Of a stretch of 64,000 nt of DNA, positions 7,071-52,997 are shown one piece after another; position 1 is the first letter of the stretch, and every line of letters begins with the position of its first letter. The stretch comes from a virus: the IMG/VR virus record IMGVR_UViG_3300027749_005140, positions 64,001 to 128,000 of that record. One strand, 5' to 3'. Made by a program: the position numbers and the translations under genes. The notes under the pieces were generated by a model that was not told the DNA's origin, did no database searches, and was given only the letters and a program-made list of their open reading frames with translations.

Positions 7071-7181
7071 TAAAAATTAGGTGAATTGAAAACTTTATAT
7101 TACTTTTGTACTATATAAAAATATAGATACTTAAAAAGTATAGTATAAAATCAAAGAAAAACAAAAAGGAACAATAAAAGT

Positions 7182-7196: not shown

Positions 7197-7295
7197 ATGA
7201 AAAATGTAAATAAAAATATAGTAGTTATGCCGCAGCCGATGCAGGATCAGGATCGTTTCACGAACCAGACTAACTATGTATTTATATCACATTAA
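7197..7295 (+). CDS. 32-residue peptide, possible small gene
   Basis: Frame starting MKNVNKNIVVMPQPMQDQDR. It has a TTAATATATA box 5 nt upstream and a strong terminator 25 nt downstream, forming a compact transcription unit. Codons such as CCG, CAG and ACG are unlike the AT-rich usage of neighbours. Coding status is uncertain; it could instead be a small RNA. Confidence 0.4.
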   Translation: MKNVNKNIVVMPQPMQDQDRFTNQTNYVFISH

Positions 7296-7320
7296 GAAAT
7301 TACGTGTATAAAAATTACAA

Positions 7321-7352
7321 ATCCGTTAGTCTTTGAGACTAACGGATTTTTT
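7321..7352 (+). terminator. Rho-independent terminator upstream of tRNA cluster
   Basis: Eleven-bp stem ATCCGTTAGTC / GACTAACGGAT with loop TTTGA, followed by a T run. It separates the small upstream unit from the tRNA genes. Confidence 0.85.
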
Positions 7353-7371: not shown

Positions 7372-7444
7372 TGGAGGTATCGTATAATGGTAATTATCCA
7401 GGGTGTTGGCCCCTGTGATTTGGGTTCGAATCCTAATACTCTAA
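7372..7444 (+). tRNA. Aberrant tRNA-Gln-like gene (predicted anticodon TTG)
   Basis: Closely related to the canonical tRNA-Gln at 7641. The acceptor 5' strand has one extra G (TGGAGGTA versus TGGAGTA), while the 3' strand TACTCTA still pairs with the version lacking it. The anticodon stem CAGGG/CCCTG encloses the loop TGTTGGC; TTG occupies positions 34-36 but position 33 is G instead of the near-universal U. T arm TTGGG-TTCGAAT-CCTAA is normal. It could be a decaying duplicate, an altered-function tRNA, or Asn (GTT) if the stem is slipped. Confidence 0.6.
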
Positions 7445-7450
7445 CAAAAA

Positions 7451-7536
7451 CTAGGCATTGGGCAGAGGCTATACCCACCTGATTTGGGATCAGGATTCTT
7501 AACAGATAATCGTCAGTTCGAATCTGACTGCTTAGA
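7451..7536 (+). tRNA. tRNA-Pro-like (TGG) with long variable arm
   Basis: Acceptor CTAGGCA/TGCTTAG with A73, anticodon stem CCTGA/TCAGG, loop TTTGGGA (anticodon TGG at 7485-7487), T arm GTCAG-TTCGAAT-CTGAC. Between anticodon and T stems lie 17 nt (7495-7511) that can pair GATT/AATC, a class II-type variable arm. Known tRNA-Pro is class I; class II arms belong to Leu, Ser and bacterial Tyr. C1-G72 and A73 do fit Pro. Confidence 0.7.
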
Positions 7537-7543
7537 CAAAAAT

Positions 7544-7632
7544 AGTCGTGTGGTGGCAAAGGTTGCCGACCTGCCTGTCACGCAGGGTTGTCTTCGGACA
7601 TTTGTATGCCGGTTCGAGTCCGGTCACGACTG
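7544..7632 (+). tRNA. tRNA-Asp-like (GTC) with long UUCG variable arm
   Basis: Acceptor AGTCGTG/CACGACT with G73, anticodon stem CCTGC/GCAGG, loop CTGTCAC (anticodon GTC at 7577-7579), T arm GCCGG-TTCGAGT-CCGGT. The variable region is 21 nt and holds the hairpin TGTC-TTCG-GACA (7589-7600), so this is a class II-shaped tRNA. Ordinary tRNA-Asp is class I, as in the second Asp gene at 7800. Confidence 0.7.
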
Positions 7633-7640
7633 CAATATAC

Positions 7641-7713
7641 TGGAGTATCGTATAATGGCTAATTACCTCGCACTTTGACTGCGATAATATAGGTTCGATT
7701 CCTATTACTCCAA
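7641..7713 (+). tRNA. tRNA-Gln (TTG)
   Basis: Acceptor TGGAGTA/TACTCCA, anticodon stem TCGCA/TGCGA, loop CTTTGAC with TTG at 7675-7677, T arm ATAGG-TTCGATT-CCTAT, A73. Canonical 73-nt gene without encoded CCA. Confidence 0.9.
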
Positions 7714-7718
7714 CAACA

Positions 7719-7793
7719 CGCGTAACGATCCACAGAGAGAGGTTACCCGACTTGGTATCGGGGTTATTGTCAGTTCGAGTCTGACTTACGCGA
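7719..7793 (+). tRNA. tRNA-Pro (TGG)
   Basis: Acceptor CGCGTAA/TTACGCG, anticodon stem CCCGA/TCGGG, loop CTTGGTA with TGG at 7753-7755, 6-nt variable loop, T arm GTCAG-TTCGAGT-CTGAC, A73. Class I. Confidence 0.9.
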
Positions 7794-7799
7794 CGAAAT

Positions 7800-7871
7800 A
7801 GTGCTGTAGCTCAGTGGAAGAGTGTCTGGTTGTCGCCCAGAAGGTCGCGGGTTCAATCCCCGTCAGTACTG
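7800..7871 (+). tRNA. tRNA-Asp (GTC)
   Basis: Acceptor AGTGCTG/CAGTACT (one G-U), anticodon stem TCTGG/CCAGA, loop TTGTCGC with GTC at 7832-7834, T arm GCGGG-TTCAATC-CCCGT, G73. Class I. It completes the second Gln-Pro-Asp triplet. Confidence 0.9.
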
Positions 7872-7903
7872 CAATTTCGATTCCGATAGGGACCGATAAT
7901 TAT

Positions 7904-7933: not shown

Positions 7934-8761
7934 ATGTATGAAAAAGTTTGTAAGTGGTGTGGTAATTTAATCTCTGTTGAAAAACAACAATCATTTGCAT
8001 CACATGTCGCTGGATGTATTATGAATCCAAAAGTAGAAGAACGATACAAAAAGAATAGTGAGAGATTCAAGGGTGTTCTAAAGGTTGAACGAACTGAAAT
8101 AGTTAAAGAGTGTCCTAAATGTAAAGAAATTTTTAAAGTAATTGCAACTGAATCAGAAATTAGACGTAATAAGGTCAGATTATTTTGTTCTAGAAAGTGT
8201 TCAAATGCAAGAATACATTCGGAGTTGACTAAAGAAAAAATGTCATCGGCATCAATTGGTATTATTCCTTATAATAAAGGAATTAAAAAAATTAAAAAAT
8301 TTACTTGTGTTAAATGTGGTAAAGAAGGTATTATAAAAAAATATAATAATAAACAAAAGTATCACTCAGAATGTTGGAGATTATCATCTGGTGGTATAAG
8401 ACAGGGTAGTAGTAGAGGTAAAAAGGGTTGGTATAAAGGTTACTGGTGTGATAGTAGTTATGAACTAGCATATCTTATTTACAATTTAGATAATTCTATT
8501 TTGATTGAAAGAAATAAAAATGGTTTTGAATATACTCATAATGATGAAAAACATTTATTCTATCCGGATTTCATAATAGGAGGTAAATATATTGAGATAA
8601 AGAATTATAAATCAGAACTTACTGATAGTAAAATATCACAATTTCCATATGAAATAGAAATATATTATAAAGAAGAAATGAAACCATTCATAGAATATGT
8701 AAAAAATAAATATGGTAAGGATTTCATAAAATTATATGAAGAAAATAAAATGGCGTTGTAG
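7934..8761 (+). CDS. Free-standing homing endonuclease with zinc fingers and PD-(D/E)XK-like domain
   Basis: This 275-residue protein has at least three Cys-rich fingers: CKWCGN with a distal H and C (residues 7-28), ECPKCKEIF followed by FCSRKCSN, and CVKCGKEG followed by HSEC. The C-terminal part, from GWYKGYWCDSSYELAYL on, contains YPDFIIGGKYIEIKNYK. That is the D-x(n)-E-x-K core of PD-(D/E)XK nucleases found in phage homing enzymes. The final codons (Met-Ala-Leu-stop) are supplied by the 5' end of the tRNA at 8752, so gene and tRNA overlap by 10 nt. Its position beside tRNA genes fits a mobile nuclease that inserted next to its target. Confidence 0.75.
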   Translation: MYEKVCKWCGNLISVEKQQSFASHVAGCIMNPKVEERYKKNSERFKGVLKVERTEIVKECPKCKEIFKVIATESEIRRNKVRLFCSRKCSNARIHSELTKEKMSSASIGIIPYNKGIKKIKKFTCVKCGKEGIIKKYNNKQKYHSECWRLSSGGIRQGSSRGKKGWYKGYWCDSSYELAYLIYNLDNSILIERNKNGFEYTHNDEKHLFYPDFIIGGKYIEIKNYKSELTDSKISQFPYEIEIYYKEEMKPFIEYVKNKYGKDFIKLYEENKMAL

Positions 8762-8823
8762 CTCAGAGGCAGAGCAGTCGGTTCATATCCGTCAGGACGG
8801 GATCTCGGAATTCCCCAACGCTA
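8752..8823 (+). tRNA. tRNA-Met-like (CAT) with deviant T arm
   Basis: Acceptor GGCGTTG/CAACGCT (G1-U72 wobble), D arm GCTC...GAGC, anticodon stem GTCGG/CCGTC with one T-T mismatch, loop TTCATAT with CAT at 8784-8786, A73. The T arm is unusual: GGGAT/TTCCC gives a T-T closing mismatch and the loop CTCGGAA lacks the TTC start. It could be elongator Met or Ile (lysidine-modified); the initiator is unlikely because position 1-72 is paired. Confidence 0.7.
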
Positions 8824-8831
8824 CAAAATAA

Positions 8832-8855
8832 AAAACCTCTCAAATGAGAGGTTTT
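8832..8855. terminator. Bidirectional terminator
   Basis: AAAACCTCTC / GAGAGGTTTT hairpin with flanking A and T runs, between the tRNA and a converging minus-strand gene. Confidence 0.8.
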
Positions 8856-8860
8856 ATTTG

Positions 8861-15532: not shown

Positions 15533-17638
15533 ATGGAGATAAACAAAAACTTACTTACGAAAACACTTGACATTAAAGCTTCTCTAGAAGATGATGACGA
15601 TGATGACTACAACAAATTCGGAGGTGGTAACGGTAAAAAATCTGACACTAAATCTAAAACTCCGGTATTAGATACTTACAGTCGTGATTTAACCAAATAT
15701 GCGGAAGAAGGTAAACTTGATCCTATTGTAGGTAGAGATAAAGAAATCGAAAGAGTTTCTCAAATTCTTTCAAGAAGAAAGAAAAATAATCCTATGTTAC
15801 TTGGTGAAGCAGGAGTTGGTAAATCTTCTATCGCAGAAGGATTAGCACTTAGAATCGCTCAACGAAAAGTTAGTAGAATCTTATTTGACAAAAGAGTTGT
15901 TATGTTGGATCTAGCTTCTATGGTTGCGGGTACTAAATACAGAGGACAATTTGAAGAAAGAATCAAAGCTCTTATGGCAGAGGTTGAAGATGATAAATCT
16001 ATTATTCTTTTTATTGATGAAATTCACACTATGATTGGTGCCGGTGGTTCAAGTGGTTCTATGGATGCTTCTAATATGTTTAAACCTGCTTTAGCAAGAG
16101 GTGAAATCCAAATCATTGGTGCAACAACACTTGATGAGTATAGAAAACATGTTGAAAAAGATGCTGCATTAGAAAGACGTTTTCAGAAAGTTATTGTTGA
16201 ACCTGCTACTGCAGAAGAAACTATACAAATCTTAACAAACATAAAAGATAAGTATGAGTCTCATCATAACGTAACTTACACTGAAGAAGCAATTAAAGCT
16301 TGTGTTGATTTAACTGTAAGATATATGTCTGATAGACACTTACCAGATAAAGCTATCGATGCGTTAGATGAAGCTGGTGCAAGAGTACACATATCTAACA
16401 TAGTAGTTCCTAAAGAAATTACTGATGTAGAACAAAAGATCATCGAAATCAAAGAAAAGAAAAATGATGTAATCAAACGTCAGAAGTATGAAGAAGCTGC
16501 TAAATTGAGAGATGTTGAAAAACAATTAAATACTCAATTACAAGTAGCTAAAGAAAGATGGGAAGAAGAAACTTTGAAAAACAGACAATTAGTAAGTGAA
16601 GATAATGTAGCTGAGGTTGTTTCTATGATTACTGGTATTCCAGTTCAGAAAGTAAATCAAAGTGAAAACAAAAAACTTTCTAAAATGTATGAAAACATTG
16701 CGGGTAAAGTTGTTGGACAAGATGATGCTGTTAAGAAAATCATCAAATCTATCCAAAGAGGTAGAGTTGGTATGAAAGATCCTAACAAACCAATCTTTAG
16801 TGGTATCTTAATTGGTAACTCTGGAGTTGGTAAAACAGAATTAGCGAAACAATTATCTAAGTATTTGTTTGAATCAGAAGATTCTTTAATCAGATTAGAT
16901 ATGTCTGAGTATATGGACAAAATCTCTTTAACAAGAATTCAAGGTGCCGCTCCTGGATATGTTGGATATGATGATGCGAACGTATTAGATAAAATAAGAA
17001 GAAAGCCTTATTCAGTTATTCTTTTAGATGAGATTGAAAAAGCTCATCCGGATATATTCAATCTTTTCTTACAGATGTTAGATGAAGGACATATTACAGA
17101 TTCTCACGGTAGAAAAGTTAGTTTTAAAAACTGTGTAATCTTAATGACTTCAAATGTTGGTACTAAAGTTGTTAAAGAATTTGGTGCTGGTGTTGGATTC
17201 TCTACCAAAACTAAAACAGATAAGAGAGAAGATGATATAAAAGGTATCTTAGAAAAAGAGTTGAAGAAAAAATTTGCACCTGAATTTATCAATAGATTAG
17301 ATGAAATCATTTACTTTAGAGATTTAGGTAAAGAAGAAATAATGAAAATTGTTGAACTTGAATTAAGAAAAACTTTAGGACGAGGTTTAGAGATTGGATT
17401 TACTTTAGAAGTGTCTGATGTGTTGAAAGAACATTTAGTTGAGATTGGTTATGATCCTCAATTTGGTGCTCGACCTTTGAAAAGAGCAATTCAACGAAGT
17501 ATCGATGATGCAGTGACTGAATTTATTATTGAAAGTGAACCAAAAGAAGGTACTACTTTAGTACTTGATTATGATGTTGAAAATGATGTAACAACAGTCA
17601 ACTTGAAAAAGAGAAAGAAAATAAAAAAAGAAGAGTAA
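15533..17638 (+). CDS. clpC: ClpC-type AAA+ unfoldase lacking the Clp N-domain
   Basis: This 701-residue protein has two AAA+ modules. D1 carries Walker A GEAGVGKS (91-98) and Walker B LFIDEIHT (159-166). A UVR-like linker lies around 315-335 (RQKYEEAAKLRDVEKQL), typical of ClpC. D2 carries Walker A GNSGVGKT (428-435), Walker B VILLDEIEKAHPDIF and the sensor GARPLKRAIQ. The loop GAGVGFST (552-559) keeps the [LIV]-G-[FL] tripeptide that docks ClpP, so it probably feeds a protease. Host ClpC has about 150 more N-terminal residues for adaptors; here they are replaced by a 45-residue acidic/Gly-rich stretch. It likely acts in the host cytosol with host ClpP. Confidence 0.9.
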   Translation: MEINKNLLTKTLDIKASLEDDDDDDYNKFGGGNGKKSDTKSKTPVLDTYSRDLTKYAEEGKLDPIVGRDKEIERVSQILSRRKKNNPMLLGEAGVGKSSIAEGLALRIAQRKVSRILFDKRVVMLDLASMVAGTKYRGQFEERIKALMAEVEDDKSIILFIDEIHTMIGAGGSSGSMDASNMFKPALARGEIQIIGATTLDEYRKHVEKDAALERRFQKVIVEPATAEETIQILTNIKDKYESHHNVTYTEEAIKACVDLTVRYMSDRHLPDKAIDALDEAGARVHISNIVVPKEITDVEQKIIEIKEKKNDVIKRQKYEEAAKLRDVEKQLNTQLQVAKERWEEETLKNRQLVSEDNVAEVVSMITGIPVQKVNQSENKKLSKMYENIAGKVVGQDDAVKKIIKSIQRGRVGMKDPNKPIFSGILIGNSGVGKTELAKQLSKYLFESEDSLIRLDMSEYMDKISLTRIQGAAPGYVGYDDANVLDKIRRKPYSVILLDEIEKAHPDIFNLFLQMLDEGHITDSHGRKVSFKNCVILMTSNVGTKVVKEFGAGVGFSTKTKTDKREDDIKGILEKELKKKFAPEFINRLDEIIYFRDLGKEEIMKIVELELRKTLGRGLEIGFTLEVSDVLKEHLVEIGYDPQFGARPLKRAIQRSIDDAVTEFIIESEPKEGTTLVLDYDVENDVTTVNLKKRKKIKKEE

Positions 17639-18172: not shown

Positions 18173-18196
18173 AATAATTTATTTTTTTTTATAATG

Positions 18197-18206
18197 TATA
18201 TATTAA
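18197..18206 (-). promoter_or_regulatory. TTAATATATA box
   Basis: Exact minus-strand motif 24 nt before the ATG at 18172. Confidence 0.45.
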
Positions 18207-18239
18207 AACAAAAACATCATTTTACATATAAAAAGAAAA

Positions 18240-18247
18240 TAATTTTG
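18240..18247 (+). promoter_or_regulatory. Possible -7 box TAATTTTG of the glycan operon
   Basis: Matches TAnnTTTG and lies 3 nt before the preferred fcl ATG at 18251, but no TTG is found 19-21 nt upstream. It is the only promoter-like signal at the head of the 16-kb island. Confidence 0.35.
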
Positions 18248-18250
18248 TAT

Positions 18251-20224
18251 ATGCAAAAAGACTCAAAAATATTTATAGCCGGTCACAAAGGTATGGTCGG
18301 TTCTGCTATACATAGAAAACTAAAAGAACTAGGTTATACTAATATAATTACTTCAACAAAATCAGATCTAAACTTAAAAAATCAAGAAGATGTTAGATTT
18401 TTTTTCTGGCATCATTCTTTTGAATATGTTTTCTTATGTGCTGCCAAAGTTGGTGGTATAAAAGCTAATTCAGACTTTAAAGCAGACTTTATCTATGATA
18501 ATATAATGATACAATCTAATATTATTCATTCCGCTAAACATTTTGGAGTTAAAAAACTTCTTTTCTTAGGTTCATCTTGTATTTATCCCAAGTTATGTCA
18601 ACAACCAATCAAAGAAGAATACTTACTTACTGGTTCATTAGAACCAACCAACGATTCGTATGCTATAGCTAAGATTGCTGGTATTAAAATGTGTCAAAGT
18701 TTTAATGAACAGTATGGTACTAATTTTATTTCAGTTATGCCAACAAATCTTTATGGTCAATGCTTTTCACACGATACTGATGTATTAACACCTAAAGGTA
18801 TCAAAAATATTAAAGACATTAAAATAGGTGATGAAATTTATACATTGAATCCAACATCACACAATGTTGAGATAGAAAAAGTTATTGCAACACAAACTAC
18901 AAAAACTAATGAATTTTTTAACTTCAAATCCAGAGGATGTGATTTTAGAGTAACACCTGATCATAAAATCTATTATAAAACATCAACAAAATATGTTAAA
19001 AGAGAGGCAGAAATATTCAGAAATATAGCAGGTAAAGAATATGGTCAAATAACATTAGCACATCATAATATTATAGAAAATAATAAGATGTATCAATTTG
19101 ATTTGAAAAAATATAAAGATGATAAACACATATTACGATATGATAACTATATGAAAGATGGAAAACATAGTAATTATAAATATTATCCAACCGAATATGA
19201 TCTATTGGATATTTGTGAATTTATAGGTTGGTATGTATCAGAAGGTTCAATATTAGATAATAAAAAAACAAAATATGATAATTTAGATTGTGGTCAGATA
19301 AGAATATCGCAACACAAATTCATAAATCCTGAAAATTATAGTGAAATAGACAATTTATTAACACGTATGGGAATATCATATGGGAAAGATAATTTTGCAT
19401 TTTACTTCACATCAAGAGCATTAAAAACTTTTATTAGAGAAGAAATTGGAGTAGGTTCTAATAATAAAAAAATACCTAATTTTATATATGAGTTGTCATC
19501 AGAATATAGATTAAAAGTTTTTAAATCTTTAATGAAAGGAGATGGTAATAAAAGTGGATTTAGATATAATACAAAGTCAATTCAACTTAGAGATGATTTT
19601 GTTTTATTGGCATTTTCACTAGGTATAAAAACATCATATTCCTTTAGTGGAGTCTGGAGAATTAACATAAGAAATATAAGTGAGAAAGTAACAGTTAAAT
19701 ATAAAAATATAAACATAGAAAATATAAATAATGAAGCAGTCTATTGTGTAACTACTGAGAAAAATCATATAATATATGCCGGTAGAAATGGTAAATTTAA
19801 TTGGATAGGCCAATGTGATAACTATGATTTGAATAACTCACACGTACTTCCTGCAATGATTAGAAAGTTTCACGAAGCTAAAATCAATAATTTACCACAC
19901 GTAGAAATATGGGGTGACGGTTCTCCAATGAGAGAGTTTTTATTTGTTGATGATCTAGCAGATGCTTGTTTACATCTAATGGAAAATTACAATGATTCTG
20001 AAATAGTAAACATTGGTACTGGTGAAGATATAACAATTAAAGATCTAGCTTACTTAGTAAAAGAAGTAGTTGGATTTAAAGGTAATATACTTTTTAATTC
20101 ACAAATGCCTAATGGAACACCTAGAAAACTATTAGATGTTTCCAAACTTACAAACTTAGGATGGCAATATAAAATATCTCTTAAAGAAGGTATAGAAAAA
20201 ACATATGTAGATTATGTCAAATAA
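18251..20224 (+). CDS. fcl: GDP-L-fucose synthase interrupted by an in-frame intein
   Basis: The extein parts together give about 306 residues of a short-chain dehydrogenase: Rossmann motif [30 protein letters not shown]-x-Y-A-x-x-K ([10 protein letters not shown]) with catalytic Tyr and Lys, [15 protein letters not shown] and [18 protein letters not shown]. The enzyme epimerises and reduces GDP-4-keto-6-deoxymannose to GDP-L-fucose, the step after Gmd, which is encoded by the overlapping next gene. The intein sits after NLYGQ in the substrate/NADP region and must be removed for activity. Start at 18251 ([14 protein letters not shown]) matches the family better than an upstream ATG at 18194. 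Confidence 0.9.
18761..19813 (+). mobile_element. Intein with LAGLIDADG-type homing endonuclease in fcl
   Basis: 351 codons in frame. It starts at Cys ([15 protein letters not shown], splicing block A) and has block [10 protein letters not shown]. Two LAGLIDADG-like helices are visible: [16 protein letters not shown] and [18 protein letters not shown]. It ends [18 protein letters not shown] followed by FNWIGQ, with Cys as the +1 residue. The final residue is Gln and the penultimate one Gly, not the usual His-Asn. Both junctions read G-Q-C, with near-identical DNA (GGTCAATGC and GGCCAATGT), the likely homing site. Confidence 0.9.
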
Positions 20225-38973: not shown

Positions 38974-39933
38974 TTACAAGTCACTAAAGAAGTCATCTTC
39001 ATCTTCTGTAGTAGCAGTTGCACTTGCAGTGTTTGTGAAACTATCTTCAAATTCAAAATCTTCAGAAGCTGGTTTAGCTTGTTGAGCTGTTGGATAAGTA
39101 GAAGAAGATTTTCCAGTCAAGAAATTACTAATTTCAGTGATTTTTGAATGTTGTTCGTCAGTTAATTGTTTCGGAGCAAAATCTTCAAGTTCATTAGTTC
39201 TGTCAAGTAAAAATTCTTTTACTTTACCTTGTGCATTTGGATCAATTTTACCTTCTACAAGTGGAGCATTTTTGAAAACAGCTTTATCTTTAAAGTAGAT
39301 TGGTAAAGAAGTAGCCTCAGGTTTGAACATACTCATTTTGTAATCTGGGTAAGTTTCGTCTCCTGTTTGAATTTCTTTAACAACTAATACGAAATCTTTA
39401 CCTGCAGATAAATCAAATACGTTACAAGGAACGCCAGAGATTTCACCATTTTTCTCAGCAGAGATTTTATCTTTAATCGTTTTACCATATTGGAAAATAC
39501 AGATTTTACCAACTAATTCTGGTTGTTGATCATCTTCTATTACTAATACGTAAGAGTAATATTTTTTAGAATACTTTAATTGTTTTGATTTCTCAATCAA
39601 GATTGCATTCTTTGAGTTTTGCATTGTGTAATACAAATCTGTTAAAGGACATTTCTCGTTAAAGTTTTTAGGTGAATCAAACCATCCACTTAATTCTTTT
39701 TGATTTTTAATGTCCACATAGTGGCTTACTTTGTCGATAGCCGATTGTCCGATTTTACCTTCTTGTGTTAAGTTAGGTAAAAAACGAACCACACTTCTCC
39801 AACCCTTCTTTTTGTCTTTACATTTTGATAAATCTACTCTGTAGATACCATCTGTGTTTGTTGCTTTTGCTTCATTTAGGAAGTCCATTTTCGAGTCTAA
39901 CCCGCCGTTAAATAAATCATCAAGTTCATTCAT
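38974..39933 (-). CDS. T4 gp32-like single-stranded DNA-binding protein
   Basis: 319 residues (T4 gp32: 301). N-terminal basic/acidic helix, then KKKGWRSVVRFLPN and KKYYSYVLVIEDDQQPELVG, which resemble the OB-fold core of gp32. In the middle, CPLTDLYY and CNVFDLSAGKDF; the canonical Zn-ribbon ligands are not all obvious. The C-terminus is very acidic and phenylalanine-rich (EDEDDFFSDL), as expected for the partner-binding tail. It coats ssDNA in replication, recombination and repair. An RNA hairpin lies 24 nt upstream of the start. It is followed by a terminator and preceded by a DEDDh exonuclease two genes away. Confidence 0.75.
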   Translation of the reverse strand: MNELDDLFNGGLDSKMDFLNEAKATNTDGIYRVDLSKCKDKKKGWRSVVRFLPNLTQEGKIGQSAIDKVSHYVDIKNQKELSGWFDSPKNFNEKCPLTDLYYTMQNSKNAILIEKSKQLKYSKKYYSYVLVIEDDQQPELVGKICIFQYGKTIKDKISAEKNGEISGVPCNVFDLSAGKDFVLVVKEIQTGDETYPDYKMSMFKPEATSLPIYFKDKAVFKNAPLVEGKIDPNAQGKVKEFLLDRTNELEDFAPKQLTDEQHSKITEISNFLTGKSSSTYPTAQQAKPASEDFEFEDSFTNTASATATTEDEDDFFSDL

Positions 39934-45896: not shown

Positions 45897-46321
45897 TAAA
45901 AATTATTATAAATCATTTTTGTTAATTTAGGATCATTAAAAGTATTACCATTAAAGAAAAGATAAATACCTTTTAGTCTCTTCACTTCTAAAATTGCCAA
46001 TTCTTCTGTTTCAAATATATTCAACATAATAGGAACTGATTTTAATTTACCTTTTTCAAATATTCTATGTTCTCCTTTAATATCATTAAAATATCTAAGT
46101 TCGATTATACTAAAGTATCCAGTTTCTACTTGATGTATCTTATATTTTATAACATAAGGTTTATTACTATACTCTTTTGTAAATATAAGAGCATCAATAC
46201 ATTCTAACATAACTTCATCTGTATGTAGATTTCTAATATTTTCCAAATCTCTTTTAGACTTTGATTGATTTATACTACACCAAAATAAACTATCTAATGT
46301 AGTTACTTGTAAATTAAACAT
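45896..46321 (-). CDS. Unknown protein in dnaJ operon
   Basis: 141 residues with mixed strands and helices (YVIKYKIHQVETGYFSIIEL). No family recognised. Overlaps dnaJ by 1 nt. Confidence 0.5.
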   Translation of the reverse strand: MFNLQVTTLDSLFWCSINQSKSKRDLENIRNLHTDEVMLECIDALIFTKEYSNKPYVIKYKIHQVETGYFSIIELRYFNDIKGEHRIFEKGKLKSVPIMLNIFETEELAILEVKRLKGIYLFFNGNTFNDPKLTKMIYNNF

Positions 46322-47391
46322 TAAAAATTACCAGCATTTTTTAGTTTTTCCAGTATTGCTTTTTGTTCAAGGTTGATAGACTTTGGTATTCTAATTCTAA
46401 TATTTATTACTAAACTTCCCATACCTTCGTGAATATCTGGAATTCCTTTACCATTTACTCTTATAATCTTACCGTGTTCTGTACCCGGTTCAATAGCTAC
46501 TATTACATCACCGTGTGGTGTTTTAACCGATACATTGTTACCAATTATTGCATCAATAACTGAAATCTCTACATCAACTATAATGTTACCACCTTCTCTT
46601 CTAAAATATGGCTCTCTAATTTCATCAAAGACAATATATAAGTCTCCCGGAACACCATTGACTACATGATTTCCAAATCCCGCCATACTCATTTGCATTC
46701 CATTTCCAACACCTTTAGGTATTTCAACATCAACGGTTTGTTCTTTTAAAGTTGTTCCATGTCCGTGACAAACATTACACTTGTTTGCTATTTGAGTTCC
46801 AGAACCATTACAGTCAGGACAACCCGAAACATTTCTAATTTGTCCAAATGGTGTATTTTGTACTACAGTTCTTTGTCCAGAACCATTACACGGAATACAA
46901 GTTCTTACATCGGAACCACCTTTACCATTACAAGGATTACAAGGTTCATGTCTTTTATACTTTAATTTCTTTGTAGCACCATTGATTATTTCTTCAATAG
47001 TTAAAGTAACTTTTATTCTTAAATCAGATCCTTTTGATTGTCTTTGTTGTTGTTGTTGTTGTCTTTGACCACCACCAAATATATCTCCAAATTGACTGAA
47101 TATATCATCCATATTGAAACCGTGACCTCTTCCACCACCGAATGGATTTCCACCTCCGAATGGGTTACCTCCACCATCTGCAGATCCGAATCTATCAAAA
47201 TTAGATTTCTTTTCTGGATCAGAAAGCACATCATAAGCTTCTGCAGCTTCTTTAAATTTTGTTTCTGCTTCTGGATTACCTGGATTTTTATCAGGATGCC
47301 ACTTCATTGCCATTTTACGATAAGACTTCTTAATCTCATCTTCTGATGCTGTTTTATCAACACCTAGTACGTTATAATAATCTTTTGCCAT
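46321..47391 (-). CDS. dnaJ: DnaJ co-chaperone
   Basis: 356 residues, near full length. J-domain with HPD at 32-34 ([11 protein letters not shown]), a Gly/Phe-rich region ([17 protein letters not shown]), a short Gln run, four CxxCxGxG zinc motifs ([32 protein letters not shown]), then the substrate-binding C-terminal domains. It delivers clients to DnaK and stimulates its ATPase. Unlike host operons, it is transcribed with grpE on the minus strand while dnaK is 3.7 kb away on the plus strand. Confidence 0.95.
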
Positions 47392-47394
47392 ATT

Positions 47395-47709
47395 TTATGT
47401 TAATATTTTTTCTAATTTTATATCTCTATATATTTGTTTGGTTGTATCTGTCAGTCTAATACTTACCCATCTATTATATCTTATAATGAACTCAGTATTA
47501 CTTATCATTGAAGACATAATTGGCATCTCATCAATTATATCTTTGAATATAGTTTCTGCATCTTGTATCATCCAATTTTCTATTTCTGATAATCTTTTAC
47601 AGAAATAATCCATAAATGGGGTAGCAGTATCAATAACGTTACCTAGATAAATATCAGAGTTAAACCCCTGTGGAGCGCCTTCTGATATTTGTACATACCA
47701 ATTAATCAT
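47395..47709 (-). CDS. Unknown protein between grpE and dnaJ
   Basis: 104 residues, MINWYVQISEGAPQGFNSDIY..., helical second half. Overlaps the upstream gene by 8 nt and precedes dnaJ by 3 nt. No family recognised. Confidence 0.5.
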   Translation of the reverse strand: MINWYVQISEGAPQGFNSDIYLGNVIDTATPFMDYFCKRLSEIENWMIQDAETIFKDIIDEMPIMSSMISNTEFIIRYNRWVSIRLTDTTKQIYRDIKLEKILT

Positions 47710-48223
47710 TTATTATTCTCTTTAAATTTTTATCTCTTGTTGCCAATTTCATATCAGCATCAACTGTTTCTGAATTATATGCTATATGGAATAAACCTGC
47801 AATATAATTATCAACTATAAGTTGTAGTGTTTCTTGTGTTCTATCTAAATTATCAAATATCTCTAATTTATTTGAAGACTTTGGTATAATTAAAACCAAA
47901 TAATCTAAAAATTCATCTATATCAAATAATAATTCAAATAATTGTAACCTTTCTTTTTTTAACATAGAAGGTGGAGTAACATAAACTTTACCCCACACTC
48001 TTCTAATTGTCGGTAGAATAAAATCTAGTAGATCATCATCACCATCATACAAATTTCCTTGAAATTCAAATCCTTTAAATAAGTAAAGTTTCTTATCAAT
48101 AACATATTCTAATAAATCTCTAAATTCAGATGTATTTTTAATACCTTGACACAACGTATCAAGAATTATTTCTCGATACGATGGGTTTTGATTTATTTCT
48201 AATATGGAAGGTTTAGTATTCAC
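47702..48223 (-). CDS. Unknown protein between grpE and dnaJ
   Basis: 173 residues, mostly helical (LQLFELLFDIDEFLDYLVLII). Its ATG overlaps the grpE stop by 1 nt. Translationally coupled; possibly virion assembly clients of the chaperones, which is inference. Confidence 0.5.
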   Translation of the reverse strand: MNTKPSILEINQNPSYREIILDTLCQGIKNTSEFRDLLEYVIDKKLYLFKGFEFQGNLYDGDDDLLDFILPTIRRVWGKVYVTPPSMLKKERLQLFELLFDIDEFLDYLVLIIPKSSNKLEIFDNLDRTQETLQLIVDNYIAGLFHIAYNSETVDADMKLATRDKNLKRIIND

Positions 48224-48675
48224 TATTTTCCTAATACAACTTTTGGATATCTAAAAGGTTTACCATTTAATGTATAACCTTTAGTGACTACATCTATTAC
48301 TTTTTTAGCACCTGCTTCAGTTATACTAATAACTTCGTGTAACTCATCATCATAAGTTTCAGTTTGAATTGGTTCAATACCTTGTGACTTTAAGAAAGTT
48401 TCTAATTTTTGTGCGATTAGTAAAACTCCTTTATCAACTTTATCCATTGATTTCAAAGCCAATGTAACATCATTATCCATATCAATAACAGATGATAACA
48501 TTTTAGTTTTTGTGTTTAATACTAACTCTTCTTTATCTTTCTGAACTCTTCTTTTGTAGTTTTCAAAATCTGCATAAAGACGTAAGTATTTGTCCTCGGA
48601 CTCTTGTAGTTTTTGTTCTACTGTTACTTCAACAATAGTTTCTTCTAAAATTTCTTTTTGTTCTTCGTTTTCCAT
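48223..48675 (-). CDS. grpE: GrpE nucleotide exchange factor
   Basis: 150 residues, shorter than host GrpE (about 190). Acidic N-terminus, the long helix EDKYLRLYADFENYKRRVQK, VIDMDNDVTLALKSM, and the beta domain YDDELHEVISITEAGAKK and YTLNGKPFRYPKVVLGK. The hallmarks FENYKRR and KPFRYPKVVLGK are intact. It exchanges ADP on DnaK. Confidence 0.9.
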   Translation of the reverse strand: MENEEQKEILEETIVEVTVEQKLQESEDKYLRLYADFENYKRRVQKDKEELVLNTKTKMLSSVIDMDNDVTLALKSMDKVDKGVLLIAQKLETFLKSQGIEPIQTETYDDELHEVISITEAGAKKVIDVVTKGYTLNGKPFRYPKVVLGK

Positions 48676-48680
48676 TTTTA

Positions 48681-49178
48681 TTAATAATTAAATTTAAGCA
48701 TCTTCTTTACCGCACTTGCGTTATAAAACTCATATATAACATTTTTGTCTTCAAGTTCAATCACTTCTAGTTTTTCTAAACTTATTTTCATTTCATCTAT
48801 GTATTCAACAAGCTCTTTTAATGAGTTTACCCAACCAGCACTAGGCTCCCAATAGTCAGGAAATTTATCTAAAAACTTATCAACTGCGTAGTCAAAGTTT
48901 TTCTTTCTTATAAGTAACGTACCATCTTTTTTAGGGTTATTGATAGATTTATTACTCAAAAATTCAGTAACATAAGTATTAAACTTATGAATTAAATTTA
49001 TAGTTTCGATTATTTTAAGTAAACCCATTACTAATGCATCTCTTTCAGATATTTCTATCTCTACATTTTCTTTAAGTATTCTTTCCGCTTCTTTTTCAGT
49101 ACATTGAAGTACATAATATACATAGGAGTCCCAAAGGCAACGCTTCACGATCTCTTCGGGACATAAAGTTATTTTCAT
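48681..49178 (-). CDS. Unknown protein, first gene of grpE-dnaJ operon
   Basis: 165 residues, helical, starting MKITLCPEEIVKRCLWDSYVY. No family recognised. 5 nt upstream of grpE. Confidence 0.5.
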   Translation of the reverse strand: MKITLCPEEIVKRCLWDSYVYYVLQCTEKEAERILKENVEIEISERDALVMGLLKIIETINLIHKFNTYVTEFLSNKSINNPKKDGTLLIRKKNFDYAVDKFLDKFPDYWEPSAGWVNSLKELVEYIDEMKISLEKLEVIELEDKNVIYEFYNASAVKKMLKFNY

Positions 49179-49230
49179 ATTATTTTTAGTAATTTTATTA
49201 TTATATGTGTATTTAGTAAGAAGTTTTTCT

Positions 49231-49238
49231 TATCTTTG
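49231..49238 (+). promoter_or_regulatory. -7 box TATCTTTG
   Basis: 18 nt before the ATG at 49257. No TTG at the expected distance, so a weaker or differently activated promoter. Confidence 0.5.
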
Positions 49239-49256
49239 TCAAAATATAATTAAAAC

Positions 49257-49448
49257 ATGGAAATAAACCAAAAAGTAGAATTAAATAAGAAGATTAAATC
49301 TTATGATGGTGCTAATTCATTTTTAGTGTCATTACAGAAGCAATTAAAAACAAATACAAAATTAAATAAAGAAGACTTTAAAGGAAGACAAGTAAAAGTT
49401 TTAAGTGATAAACAATACTCTGTTGCCGAAAGTTTATTAAAAGACTAA
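49257..49448 (+). CDS. Small basic protein upstream of RNA ligase
   Basis: 63 residues, MEINQKVELNKKIKSYDGAN..., Lys-rich. Followed after 3 nt by the next gene. No family recognised. Confidence 0.5.
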   Translation: MEINQKVELNKKIKSYDGANSFLVSLQKQLKTNTKLNKEDFKGRQVKVLSDKQYSVAESLLKD

Positions 49449-49451
49449 AAT

Positions 49452-49664
49452 ATGAATAACAATTATAACATCGCAGTATCTGCAATAGATCTTCTTAGTG
49501 ATGGTTTAACATCTAACAACCATACTAAGATAAGAGAAGCACTTAATATGATTCATGACGAGAATTTTTCTTGGAGTGGATTAGAAGTTGTCAAGATGGA
49601 GTGGGATGAATTATTATTAGAAATTAAGCGAAGATACGAAGAAGTAAAAGTAAAACTTAAATAA
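49452..49664 (+). CDS. Small helical protein upstream of RNA ligase
   Basis: 70 residues, MNNNYNIAVSAIDLLSDGL..., with an amphipathic helix near the end. 1-nt gap to the ligase gene. No family recognised. Confidence 0.5.
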   Translation: MNNNYNIAVSAIDLLSDGLTSNNHTKIREALNMIHDENFSWSGLEVVKMEWDELLLEIKRRYEEVKVKLK

Positions 49665-49665
49665 A

Positions 49666-50925
49666 ATGAAAACACTATACAACATACCAACTTACGATGA
49701 AGCATTAGCTTTGGTTAATAGAGTGGACTCTCCATTCTACGAGTCAAAATCTATTGTTGGTGGGTATGCTGTATCTACTTTCAACTATAGATTAGCTTCT
49801 TGGGCGGATTTCAATGATGTAGGTGCGAAAGAAATGAGAGGAATATCATACGTATTCAACTCTGACGGATCTTTGTTTAAAAGATACTTATTATTAGAGA
49901 AATTCTTTAACTTGAACCAAGTACCAGATACTATGTATTCAGAAGTTAAAGATTTCAAAATAAAATCTATCTACAACAAAGAAGATGGATCTGTTGCATC
50001 ATTTATAAAACTTCCAGATGGATCAGTTTTTGGTAAATCAAAAATGTCTGTTATTACAGACCAAGCAGAAGGTATCATGAGAGTTTACAAATCAAATGAG
50101 TCTGTAAAAAGATTTGTTGATTGGACTTTCGATAACGATATATCTGCAATCTTTGAGTATGTCGCTCCATCAAACAAAATTGTTTTGAGATATGCAAAAG
50201 AAGATTTAATCTTGTTAAAATTGAGAGATAATGTTACTGGTGAACTATTAGACTTAAATGACTATTTAGACGTAATCGGAGACATTAGAATGGCGCCTTC
50301 TGAGGCAGGTTATACTTTAGACGAGTTAATCGAAATGGCTTCTTACACAGAAGATAAAGAAGGATGGATAATTGAATTTACTAACGGTTTATTGATGAAA
50401 ATCAAAACTGATTGGTACTTCAAAAGGCACGGTATATTGACTGAGGATATTTACAGAGAAAACATTATAATCAACTACATCTTAACTGATGAAATTGATG
50501 ATGTTGTTGCACAAATCCCAGAAGATGAAGTAGAAGCTCACGCTAGAATTGAAAAAATTATCTTAATAGTTAAAAGAGCTTTATCTAAAAAAGTTGAAGA
50601 AATAAAAAGATCATATGAGTTCTACTTAACTGTGGGTTCAAGAAAAGATTATGCAATCAACTATAGAGGTAAAGAAGAGAACTTCGCGTTTGTAATGAAA
50701 ATGGCGACTGTAGATGAAATGGCATTACTATCAAGAGAAGAAATCTTAGAAATCTTTGAAGAATATGAAAGATATGAATATATGATCAAAAATTCTGAAC
50801 CATTTGAAATGGCGAAAGGTTGGTTGTCGAGAGATACTAACAAATTGTTAATAGCAAGAGATTGGTTATCTAAAATTGACCCAACTTTATTCTTCATTGA
50901 CGTTGAAGAAGATGTAGAAGACTAA
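49666..50925 (+). CDS. rnlA: T4 Rnl1-type RNA ligase
   Basis: 419 residues (T4: 374). Adenylation motif I is KEDGSVASF with Lys105. Upstream is EMRGISYVFNSDGSLFKR, and LLEKFFNLNQVPDTM matches T4 EKFFNLNENPFTM. FEYVAPSNKIVLRYA aligns with T4 FEFVAPTNRIVLAYQ, and LLMKIKTDWYFKRH with motif V. It seals RNA 3'-OH to 5'-phosphate, classically repairing cleaved host tRNA anticodon loops. The kinase partner is at 13295. Last gene before a terminator. Confidence 0.95.
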   Translation: MKTLYNIPTYDEALALVNRVDSPFYESKSIVGGYAVSTFNYRLASWADFNDVGAKEMRGISYVFNSDGSLFKRYLLLEKFFNLNQVPDTMYSEVKDFKIKSIYNKEDGSVASFIKLPDGSVFGKSKMSVITDQAEGIMRVYKSNESVKRFVDWTFDNDISAIFEYVAPSNKIVLRYAKEDLILLKLRDNVTGELLDLNDYLDVIGDIRMAPSEAGYTLDELIEMASYTEDKEGWIIEFTNGLLMKIKTDWYFKRHGILTEDIYRENIIINYILTDEIDDVVAQIPEDEVEAHARIEKIILIVKRALSKKVEEIKRSYEFYLTVGSRKDYAINYRGKEENFAFVMKMATVDEMALLSREEILEIFEEYERYEYMIKNSEPFEMAKGWLSRDTNKLLIARDWLSKIDPTLFFIDVEEDVED

Positions 50926-50949
50926 AACCCACCGATTGGTGGGTTTTTT
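50924..50949 (+). terminator. Rho-independent terminator
   Basis: AAAACCCACC-GATT-GGTGGGTTTT hairpin starting in the ligase stop codon. Confidence 0.85.
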
Positions 50950-51006
50950 AAAAATTTGTAAAACTTTTTTAATTTTTACAATATATATTTAGTGTAAAGA
51001 TTATGT

Positions 51007-51021
51007 ATGACATAATGTCAT
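51007..51021 (+). promoter_or_regulatory. Palindromic operator-like site upstream of dnaK
   Basis: ATGACAT-A-ATGTCAT is a perfect 7-bp palindrome. Another half site ATGTCA follows at 51036-51041. Situated 27 nt before the -7 box, a plausible repressor or activator site. Confidence 0.45.
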
Positions 51022-51047
51022 TATCTTATGTATAAATGTCAGTAAAA

Positions 51048-51055
51048 TAACTTTG
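51048..51055 (+). promoter_or_regulatory. -7 box TAACTTTG of dnaK
   Basis: Matches TAnnTTTG, 49 nt upstream of the ATG. No TTG at the usual position, so it may need an activator. Confidence 0.5.
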
Positions 51056-51104
51056 GCACAGAAATTGAATATTACTAATTACAAAAAAATAAATTAATTA
51101 AATT

Positions 51105-52997
51105 ATGGCAAAAGATGTAATCATCGGAATCGATCTTGGAACCACTAATAGCTGTGTAGCAGTTGTTGAAGGTGGAGAACCAATCGTTATTTCAAATTCA
51201 GAAGGTAAAAGAACAACACCTTCAGTTGTAGGATTCACTGATAAAGACAGAAAAGTTGGTGACCCTGCGAAAAGACAAGCAGTTACAAACCCTGAAAAAA
51301 CTGTTTACTCAATAAAAAGATTTGTAGGGAAAGACTTTTCATCTTGTACAGATGAAGTAACAAGAGTTCCTTACAAAGTAGAAAAAACTGGCTCAAATGT
51401 ACCTGGTGTTAGAATTGACGACAGAGTATATACTCCACAAGAAATCTCAGCAATGATTCTTCAAAAGATGAAGAAAACTGCAGAAGATTACTTGGGTTAT
51501 GAAGTAACTAGAGCAGTTATTACCGTTCCTGCTTACTTCGGTGATGCAGAAAGAACAGCAACAATCGAAGCAGGAGAAATCGCTGGTTTGAAAGTTGAAA
51601 GAATTATCAATGAACCAACTGCGGCTGCTTTAGCATATGGTTTAGATAAGAAAAACACTGAATCTAAAATTTTAGTATTTGACTGTGGTGGTGGAACTCA
51701 CGACGTGTCTGTATTAGAAATTGGTGATGGTGTTTTTGAAGTAAAATCTACTGATGGTGATACTCACTTAGGTGGTGACGACTTTGATAATGAAATCATT
51801 ACTTGGATGGTAGAAGAATTCAAATCTGAAAATGGTATGGATTTATCAAAAGATGCTATGGCATTACAAAGATTAAAAGAAGCTGCTGAGAAAGCGAAGA
51901 TTGAATTATCTTCTTCTACAACAACTGATATTAATCTACCTTACATCACATCAAGAGACAATCAGCCTTTACACTTTGTTAAACAGTTAACTAAAGCGAA
52001 ATTTGAACAAATGACTAGTTCATTAGTTAAAAGAGCTATTGATTGTGCAAAGTCTGCTCTTAAAAGTGCTAAATTAAAACCATCTGATATTGACGAAGTT
52101 ATCTTAGTTGGTGGTTCTACAAGAATTCCTGCTATTCAAGATGCTATCGAATCATTCATTGGTAAGAAAGCAAACAAATCTGTGAACCCAGATGAAGTTG
52201 TTGCGTTAGGAGCAGCTATTCAAGGAGCAGTTTTAACTGGTGGTATTTCAGATGTATTACTTTTAGATGTAACTCCTCTTTCACTTGGTATTGAAACAAT
52301 GGGTAGCGTATTTACAAAATTGATTGATGCAAATACTACTATTCCTACAAGAAAAAGTGAAACATTCTCTACTGCCTCAGATAATCAATCATCAGTGGAA
52401 ATCCACTGTCTTCAAGGAGAAAGACCGATGGCAAGAGATAACCGTTCTTTAGGTAGATTCCATTTAGATGGTATCCCACCTGCACCAAGAGGTGTTCCCC
52501 AAGTTGAGGTGATTTTGGATATCGATGCTAACGGTATACTTTCTGTAACCGCGAAAGATAAAGCTACTGGTAAAGAAAACAAAATCCGAATTGAAGGTGG
52601 TTCTCAGTTGACTAAAGAGGAAATTGAGAACATGAAGGCAGAAGCTGAAGCTAATGCAGAATCTGATAGAATTGAAAGAGAAACAGTTGACAAACTTAAC
52701 GGTGCAGACAACTTAATCTTCCAAACAGAAAAACAAATTAAAGAGTTTGATGAAAAACTATCAGAAGAAGACAAGAGAGCTTTAGGTATAGACCTAGAAG
52801 AATTGAAAAAAGCTTATGCTGATAAAAATGTTGATGCAATTGACGAAAGTTCTAAAAAACTAAGTGAATCATGGCATGCAATCAGTACTAAATTGTACGA
52901 ACAATCTCAAAATGAACCTGAGCAAACTAACGAAAGCTCAGATGATAATGTTGAAGATGTAAGCTTTGAGGAAGTTTCTGATGAAGAAACTAAGTAA
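51105..52997 (+). CDS. dnaK: DnaK (Hsp70) chaperone
   Basis: 630 residues, full length. [14 protein letters not shown] at the start, [25 protein letters not shown], the Bacteroidota-type [20 protein letters not shown], and [12 protein letters not shown] in the nucleotide domain. The linker is [13 protein letters not shown], then the substrate domain ([16 protein letters not shown]) and an acidic C-terminal tail. Conserved phosphate-binding and linker residues are intact, so it should be active. It refolds proteins with DnaJ and GrpE, both encoded in the window. Close similarity to host DnaK suggests capture from a host. Confidence 0.97.

What the first reader, a model, noticed from the sequence alone, without database searches (positions are those of the whole stretch)
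7372..7632. Three odd tRNAs duplicate the anticodon set of three normal neighbours
The cluster is Gln-Pro-Asp, then Gln-Pro-Asp again. The second triplet is canonical. In the first, the Gln copy has an extra acceptor base and G33, the Pro copy has a 17-nt class II variable arm and the Asp copy a 21-nt arm with a UUCG hairpin. Long arms belong to Leu, Ser and Tyr tRNAs, so these may be mischarged, recoding or decoy tRNAs (for example cleavage-resistant). The arrangement looks deliberate rather than random decay, because acceptor and T stems remain intact.
Basis: seen in the sequence. Interest (0 to 1): 0.9.

Follow-up and report, generated by a model that had tools for sequence, protein, structure and literature searches.

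The report
Self-sensing switches on phage tRNA operons
The odd transfer-RNA genes are real, but the bigger discovery lies just upstream: in a group of giant phages almost every tRNA gene cluster sits behind a tiny gene whose codons spell out the very tRNAs in that cluster, plus a removable transcription stop, so the virus appears to switch on replacement tRNAs only when the matching ones run short.

Summary
Six tRNA genes (Gln-Pro-Asp twice) lie at 7372-7872; the first Gln has G33 and an extra acceptor base, the first Pro a 17-nt and the first Asp a 21-nt variable region. The second triplet is not fully canonical: its Pro copy scores worst. Mischarging is unlikely, because the long-arm copies keep their cognate end elements, and such copies recur across a clade of megaphages.

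The larger finding is upstream. A promoter, a 32-codon leader ORF (7197-7295; ...MPQPMQDQD...), an antiterminator segment and an intrinsic terminator (7319-7349) precede the array. The leader's central residues are Pro, Gln, Asp and Met. I found 47 such leader/terminator/array units in 8 related phage records. Leader residues match the downstream tRNAs 525 times, against 228 when leaders are swapped within a phage (0 of 100,000 permutations). Leaders prefer rare codons and, for Ile, match the isoacceptor. In 46 of 47, a stalled ribosome is predicted to free a segment that blocks the terminator.

Best reading: trp-type transcription attenuation, repurposed so a phage tRNA operon senses shortage of its own tRNAs. 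I found no earlier description in the library searched. Transcription data are needed.

The parts
7077..7108 (+). Bacteroidetes-type promoter: TTAGG-type upstream element and TA-n2-TTTG (7101-7108)
   Evidence: Motif TAnn(n)TTTG within 200 nt upstream of the leader in 38 of 47 units versus 17% in shuffles
7197..7295 (+). Leader peptide ORF MKNVNKNIVVMPQPMQDQDRFTNQTNYVFISH
   Evidence: 97% identical leaders in three other contigs
7230..7253 (+). Control codons CCG CAG CCG ATG CAG GAT CAG GAT (Pro Gln Pro Met Gln Asp Gln Asp), matching the downstream Gln/Pro/Asp tRNAs
   Evidence: composition match by permutation; rare codons CCG and CAG enriched in leaders
7218..7229 (+). Region 1: pairs with region 2 in the ribosome-free fold (protector hairpin)
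7266..7274 (+). Region 2: CAGACTAAC, a copy of the terminator 3' arm; antiterminator strand
7319..7352 (+). Intrinsic terminator (hairpin 7319-7349; 5' arm/region 3 GTTAGTCT 7325-7332) and T run
   Evidence: hairpin -17.8 to -18.4 kcal/mol
7372..7445 (+). tRNA-Gln(TTG), odd copy: loop TGTTGGC (G33), one extra acceptor base in this record only
7451..7537 (+). tRNA-Pro(TGG), odd copy: 17-nt variable region; C1:G72 and A73 kept
7544..7633 (+). tRNA-Asp(GTC), odd copy: 21-nt variable region with cUUCGg hairpin; G73 kept
7641..7714 (+). tRNA-Gln(TTG), canonical; anticodon stem exchanged with compensation in G002
7719..7794 (+). tRNA-Pro(TGG), short variable region but T37 and degenerate D arm; below the Rfam report level
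7800..7872 (+). tRNA-Asp(GTC), canonical
8752..8823 (+). Seventh tRNA-like sequence (CAT anticodon loop, abnormal T loop), overlapping the end of the HNH-like ORF 7934-8761
8830..8856 (+). Terminator-like hairpin closing the region
   Evidence: sequence, (read by eye)

Best explanation
The tRNA array is an operon under leader-peptide transcription attenuation, with control codons chosen to match the tRNAs the operon makes. RNA polymerase starts at the upstream promoter and a ribosome translates the leader. If charged Pro, Gln or Asp tRNAs are plentiful, the ribosome runs through codons 12-19, region 2 is covered or kept by region 1, the terminator forms, and the tRNAs are not transcribed. If one of these tRNAs is short, the ribosome stalls on the control codons, region 2 pairs with the terminator's 5' arm, the terminator cannot form, and the whole array is transcribed; the new tRNAs then relieve the stall. 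Shown from sequence: promoter motif, leader, matching codons, terminator, competing antiterminator, their joint change across phages. Inferred: stalling, readthrough and feedback. The paired normal and structurally odd copies of each tRNA are probably alternative forms kept against tRNA-cutting defences (inference, weaker).
For: A blind rule (terminator within 300 nt of a tRNA, longest short ORF ending 10-60 nt before it) gives 48 units in 8 phage records, 47 after one evident false hit is dropped. Leader residues match array amino acids 525 times against a mean of 228 under within-phage swaps, z 11.8, 0 of 100,000; in every phage the true pairing is the single best permutation (all 48 units). 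Matches are concentrated at codons 6-21. Where Gln tRNAs form their own array a poly-Gln leader precedes them (MTTTQQIQQQQINQTD, MKNLTLQQQQQMIKLD, MTTSFQQQQQQQINRTD), and Arg/Ser arrays have MKTIITTSSSSSSRSSNL-type leaders. Control codons are rare ones: GTG 0.83 v 0.04, ACG 0.54 v 0.03, CCG 0.60 v 0.07, CGC 0.29 v 0.00. Arrays with Ile-TAT use ATA in the leader (14 of 18), arrays with Ile-GAT use ATT/ATC (11 of 12). Region 2 pairs with its own terminator arm at -13.0 kcal/mol mean against -8.5 for swapped arms; 46 of 47 sequester at least 5 nt of the arm in the stalled state, mean energy -18.1 v -8.9 for shuffles. Scanning this whole record, both strands, for promoter plus leader plus terminator plus antiterminator returns four places, all before tRNA arrays.
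Against: No transcript, ribosome-profiling or culture evidence exists; all records are metagenomic assemblies. Several of the 8 phages are close relatives, so units are not independent (though each phage passes alone). The antiterminator in a few units (the Arg/Ser leader of this record) is weak, and shuffled spacers also sequester 5 nt or more in 68% of cases, so the energy and the 8-nt threshold (89% v 38%) are the informative measures. In some units region 2 lies 20 or more nt upstream of the stop codon, so the finishing ribosome may not cover it and the protector hairpin must do the work. Nine leaders lack the promoter motif; several of these are second leaders inside an array.
Confidence: 0.88

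Rival explanations
1. One reading: the odd tRNAs are mischarged (Leu/Ser/Tyr) or recoding tRNAs that insert other residues at Pro, Asp or Gln codons.
For: Long variable arms are a SerRS/LeuRS/TyrRS trait and the arms are real.
Against: 3'-end elements are those of the cognate amino acid in both long- and short-arm copies (Pro C1:G72/A73, Asp G73, Cys U73, His C73, Asn G73). Leu tRNAs of the same clade often have short arms (13 of 36), so arm length does not track identity here.
Confidence: 0.04
2. Only codon compensation: the phage carries a near-complete tRNA set to suit its AT-rich genes, in operons with ordinary terminators and unrelated small ORFs.
For: About 40 tRNA genes covering most amino acids; codon compensation is a standard proposal for phage tRNAs (PMC10264068).
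Against: Does not explain the match between leader codons and array content, the isoacceptor-level match for Ile or the paired antiterminators.
Confidence: 0.04
3. Tripwire variant (compatible with the best explanation): attenuators exist mainly to detect host tRNA-cutting defences; cleavage of a host tRNA stalls the leader and turns on structurally altered, cleavage-resistant copies.
For: Normal and odd copies coexist across the clade. Variable-loop differences protect T5 tRNA-Tyr, and Septu cuts the tRNA-Tyr variable loop (PMC13096335). The phage encodes a T4-Rnl1-like RNA ligase (window 49666-50925).
Against: No nuclease, host or resistance was tested; ordinary depletion by phage demand or amino-acid shortage would work equally well.
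Confidence: 0.35
4. Odd copies are decaying pseudogenes (a rival for the tRNAs only, not for the attenuator).
For: Lower covariance scores; one-base acceptor insertion in the first Gln; the seventh copy has an abnormal T loop.
Against: Pro-long and Asp-long are almost unchanged in G002; long-arm Asn and Cys recur in G001/G002 and long arms occur in all 8 records. They stay above the Rfam cut-off.
Confidence: 0.12

Closest known systems
Leader-peptide transcription attenuators of amino-acid operons (trp, his, leu, thr, phe; Rfam has several leader families)
   Same: Promoter, short leader ORF rich in control codons, competing antiterminator and terminator hairpins, rare control codons.
   Different: Controls tRNA genes, not biosynthetic enzymes; the control codons cover one to several amino acids equal to the tRNA set of the array; encoded by a phage; no Rfam leader family reaches its gathering cut-off.
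pheM-pheST attenuator of E. coli (own knowledge)
   Same: Attenuation by a leader peptide of a translation-machinery gene, sensing the charged tRNA.
   Different: Regulates a synthetase, one amino acid, in a chromosome.
T-box riboswitches (own knowledge)
   Same: Terminator/antiterminator choice that senses tRNA charging.
   Different: No T-box match here; sensing is by translated codons.
Phage tRNAs that evade tRNA-targeting defences (PMC10264068, PMC11555353, PMC13096335)
   Same: Phage tRNAs replacing cut host tRNAs; altered anticodon or variable loops.
   Different: No regulation by tRNA sensing was mentioned in the passages read; here variable-arm class itself is swapped in many isoacceptors.
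Allo-tRNAs / class II tRNAs (own knowledge)
   Same: Long variable arm with unexpected anticodon.
   Different: 7/5 acceptor/T stems and cognate discriminators, not 8/4 or 9/3 Ser-type tRNAs.

Membership tests
Leader-peptide transcription attenuator | Short translatable ORF between promoter and regulated genes | tested here: met
   47 units; 7197-7295 in the window
Leader-peptide transcription attenuator | Control codons matching the regulated function | tested here: met
   525 v 228 residues, 0 of 100,000 permutations; Ile isoacceptor match
Leader-peptide transcription attenuator | Intrinsic terminator between leader and genes | tested here: met
   hairpin -17.8 kcal/mol in the window
Leader-peptide transcription attenuator | Mutually exclusive antiterminator freed by a stalled ribosome | tested here: met
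   By prediction only: 46 of 47, above shuffles and swapped arms
Leader-peptide transcription attenuator | Readthrough depends on charged-tRNA supply | not testable with these tools
   Needs transcription assays
T-box riboswitch | Specifier loop and T-box sequence | tested here: not met
   No Rfam T-box match in window, L009 or L010 at gathering thresholds
Functional elongator tRNA | Acceptor, anticodon and T arms and overall model score | tested here: met
   First three copies 32-40 bits, above the cut-off; the second Pro is not reported by Rfam
Allo-tRNA / Ser-type recoding tRNA | 8/4 or 9/3 acceptor/T geometry and Ser-type identity | tested here: not met
   7/5 geometry; end elements match the cognate short isoacceptors
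Nuclease-resistant phage tRNA | Resistance to a tRNA-cutting enzyme | not testable with these tools
   Would need cleavage assays

The most novel reading that the evidence does not exclude
Giant phages carry a multi-channel set of attenuators, one per tRNA operon, each reading a different group of isoacceptors, that together act as a real-time monitor of the cell's tRNA pool and release structurally disguised replacement tRNAs when host defences cut particular tRNAs.
Probability: 0.35. Interest if true: 0.96.

Novelty: new variant of a known kind. Interest (0 to 1): 0.88.

Why it matters
The function and control of phage tRNA genes have been debated for decades. A regulator whose codons name its own products gives a direct, readable statement of what each tRNA operon responds to: shortage of exactly those tRNAs. 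It would extend classical attenuation to feedback control of tRNA supply by a virus, make the codon-compensation and defence-evasion models experimentally separable, and offer reporters of tRNA depletion during infection. A similar architecture appears in one much more distant phage and, less certainly, in Lak megaphages.

Tried and rejected
Mischarging (end elements cognate). Pseudogene decay as the main account (conservation in relatives). T-box control (no Rfam match). A permuted tRNA gene at L009 10583-10728: conserved in three phages; Rfam's best weak match is YrlA, a Y RNA (22 bits against a cut-off of 69), so it is listed only in passing. Distant phages G020, G021 and G031 show no convincing leaders with this rule; G024 has a leader and terminator but its array covers all amino acids, so the match is uninformative. 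For G030/G032/G033 and Lak-B6 the fold fits but the composition match is weak or not significant (p 0.03-0.11). One spurious unit (G017 L125) was dropped from the structure counts. Five searches for a prior report of phage tRNA operon attenuation returned nothing relevant, nor did two later ones; the library lacks most subscription journals, so this does not prove absence. The sister megaphage Mar_Mega_1 (OU342829) was not in the collections.

Full report
Setting. The window is bases 64001-128000 of a 131,933-bp virus record with 39 tRNA matches. A conserved ClpB-like protein (window 15533-17638) ties it to IMG/VR contigs and to LR745206 (635 kb) and LR756502 (642 kb). A published study places those two uncultured phages among the largest megaphages (PMC9723777). 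Promoters of the form TAnnTTTG suggest a Bacteroidetes host (inference).

The tRNAs. Two further facts change the picture. First, long variable arms on non-Leu/Ser/Tyr tRNAs occur in all eight related records: His, Asn, Cys, Thr, Pro and Asp here; Lys, Gln, Val, Ile, Glu, Arg and Met elsewhere; 39 of 244 in all. Thirteen of 36 Leu tRNAs have lost theirs. Second, long-arm copies keep cognate discriminator and first-pair identities. Arm length therefore varies freely while identity at the end of the acceptor stem is held. This argues for functional isoacceptor variants and against mischarging. Why both forms are kept is not shown. Resistance to tRNA-cutting defences is the best-supported guess, given published cases where variable-loop (PMC13096335) or anticodon-loop (PMC10264068) differences matter, and given that this phage also encodes a T4-Rnl1-like RNA ligase.

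The attenuator. Reading the 300 nt before each array in this record showed the same order each time: promoter, about 60-100 nt, a short ORF, an intrinsic terminator, then tRNAs. The peptides name the tRNAs that follow: MPQPMQDQD before Gln/Pro/Asp; FSKSFKWFSHKF before Lys/Trp/Phe/His; IAIEAIGGYEAGYII before Tyr/Glu/Ile/Gly/Ala; LNINLTLNVLCLRR before Arg/Leu; NTVNINVITITNCVNNTT before Asn/Val/Cys/Thr; TSSSSSSRSS before Arg, with a Ser-type tRNA (GGA loop) just after it.

Test in relatives. A rule blind to peptide content found 48 units in eight records. When leaders are permuted among arrays of the same phage, the true pairing scores 525 matched residues against 228 +/- 25, never reached in 100,000 trials, and is the unique best permutation in each phage separately. 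Matching residues occupy codons 6-21, not the first five codons or the tail. Where arrays are split, leaders are split too: Gln-only arrays have poly-Gln leaders in three phages. Leaders use codons rare in this phage's genes. For Ile the codon used (ATA or ATT) follows the anticodon encoded (TAT or GAT): 14 of 18 and 11 of 12, Fisher p = 0.0005 without correction for relatedness. The Arg trend (CGN with ACG, AGR with TCT) is in the same direction, p = 0.06.

RNA switch. Just after the control codons lies a segment that repeats the terminator's 3' arm and so can pair with its 5' arm. In the window CAGACTAAC (7266-7274) pairs with GTTAGTCT (7325-7332). With a ribosome on the Gln/Asp codons this antiterminator is the minimum-energy fold of the RNA made so far (-13.1 kcal/mol); from a ribosome at the stop codon onward only the terminator forms (-18.4); with no ribosome the region around 7218-7229 pairs with region 2 and leaves the terminator free. 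Once the 3' arm has been made the terminator is the more stable fold even in the stalled state, so, as in the classical attenuators, the order of synthesis matters. This is the 1:2/2:3/3:4 logic of the trp attenuator. Over 47 units the own-arm pairing averages -13.0 against -8.5 kcal/mol with other arms of the same phage; 46 of 47 block the terminator arm when stalled, with mean energy -18.1 against -8.9 kcal/mol for shuffled spacers. Sequences of region 2 and of both terminator arms change together between phages, for example CTTCGGGT/ACCCGAAC, GAGGGTTC/GAACCCTC and CGGGTTTTG/CAAAACCCG.

Specificity and space. Scanning this whole record on both strands for promoter, leader, terminator and antiterminator together gives four places, all before tRNA arrays. 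In most units only 5-30 nt separate terminator and first tRNA, leaving little room for another promoter, so array transcription should depend on readthrough (inference).

Wider occurrence. A phage with only 41% identity in the ClpB-like protein (G027) has leader ...TPAPAVAFRRGTGTGTGTCVPAGCG... before an Arg/Thr/Val/Ala/Gly/Pro array (binomial p 1e-5 against the amino-acid composition of the window's own genes) with a strong antiterminator. Three other jumbo phages (G030, G032, G033) and Lak-B6 have leader, antiterminator and terminator before mixed arrays, but the composition match is weak or not significant. G020, G021 and G031 gave no convincing unit.

What is known. Leader-peptide attenuation of amino-acid operons is classical, and signs of it were reported in Flavobacterium (PMC9723704). 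Seven text searches aimed at attenuation of phage or bacterial tRNA operons returned nothing relevant. The library is partial. The mechanism is thus known in kind, but its use for feedback control of tRNA genes by a virus appears new.

Limits. Everything rests on sequence and folding predictions from metagenomic assemblies. Relatives are not independent. No step of stalling, readthrough or tRNA function was observed.

Noticed in passing
L009:10583-10728 (record G000 39582-39727); L095:2734-2885; L099:5033-5177: A conserved RNA element whose tRNA-like 3' half precedes its 5' half, between Gly and Ala tRNA genes, with outer stem AAGATAG/CTATCTT; weak Rfam match to the Y RNA family YrlA (22 bits, cut-off 69). 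A likely phage Y RNA.
   Followed up: partly
window 49666-50925: T4 Rnl1-type RNA ligase gene, the type that repairs cut tRNAs in T4.
   Followed up: no
L010:12573-12647 and 12 further Leu tRNAs in relatives: Leu tRNAs with short (class I) variable regions, the mirror image of the long-arm copies.
   Followed up: partly
L010:13649-13729; L010:13939-13998: An Ile(GAT)-like tRNA with a variable region of about 25 nt missed by ARAGORN, and an Ile(GAT)-like sequence that Rfam matches only in its middle (positions 8-63).
   Followed up: partly
L114:813-886 (G012): A tRNA with CTA anticodon (possible amber suppressor) in a relative.
   Followed up: no
window 18194-20224: NAD-dependent epimerase gene interrupted by a Hint/intein-like domain.
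   Followed up: no
window 46321-52997: Phage-encoded DnaJ (46321-47391), GrpE (48223-48675) and HSP70 (51105-52997) chaperone genes.
   Followed up: no
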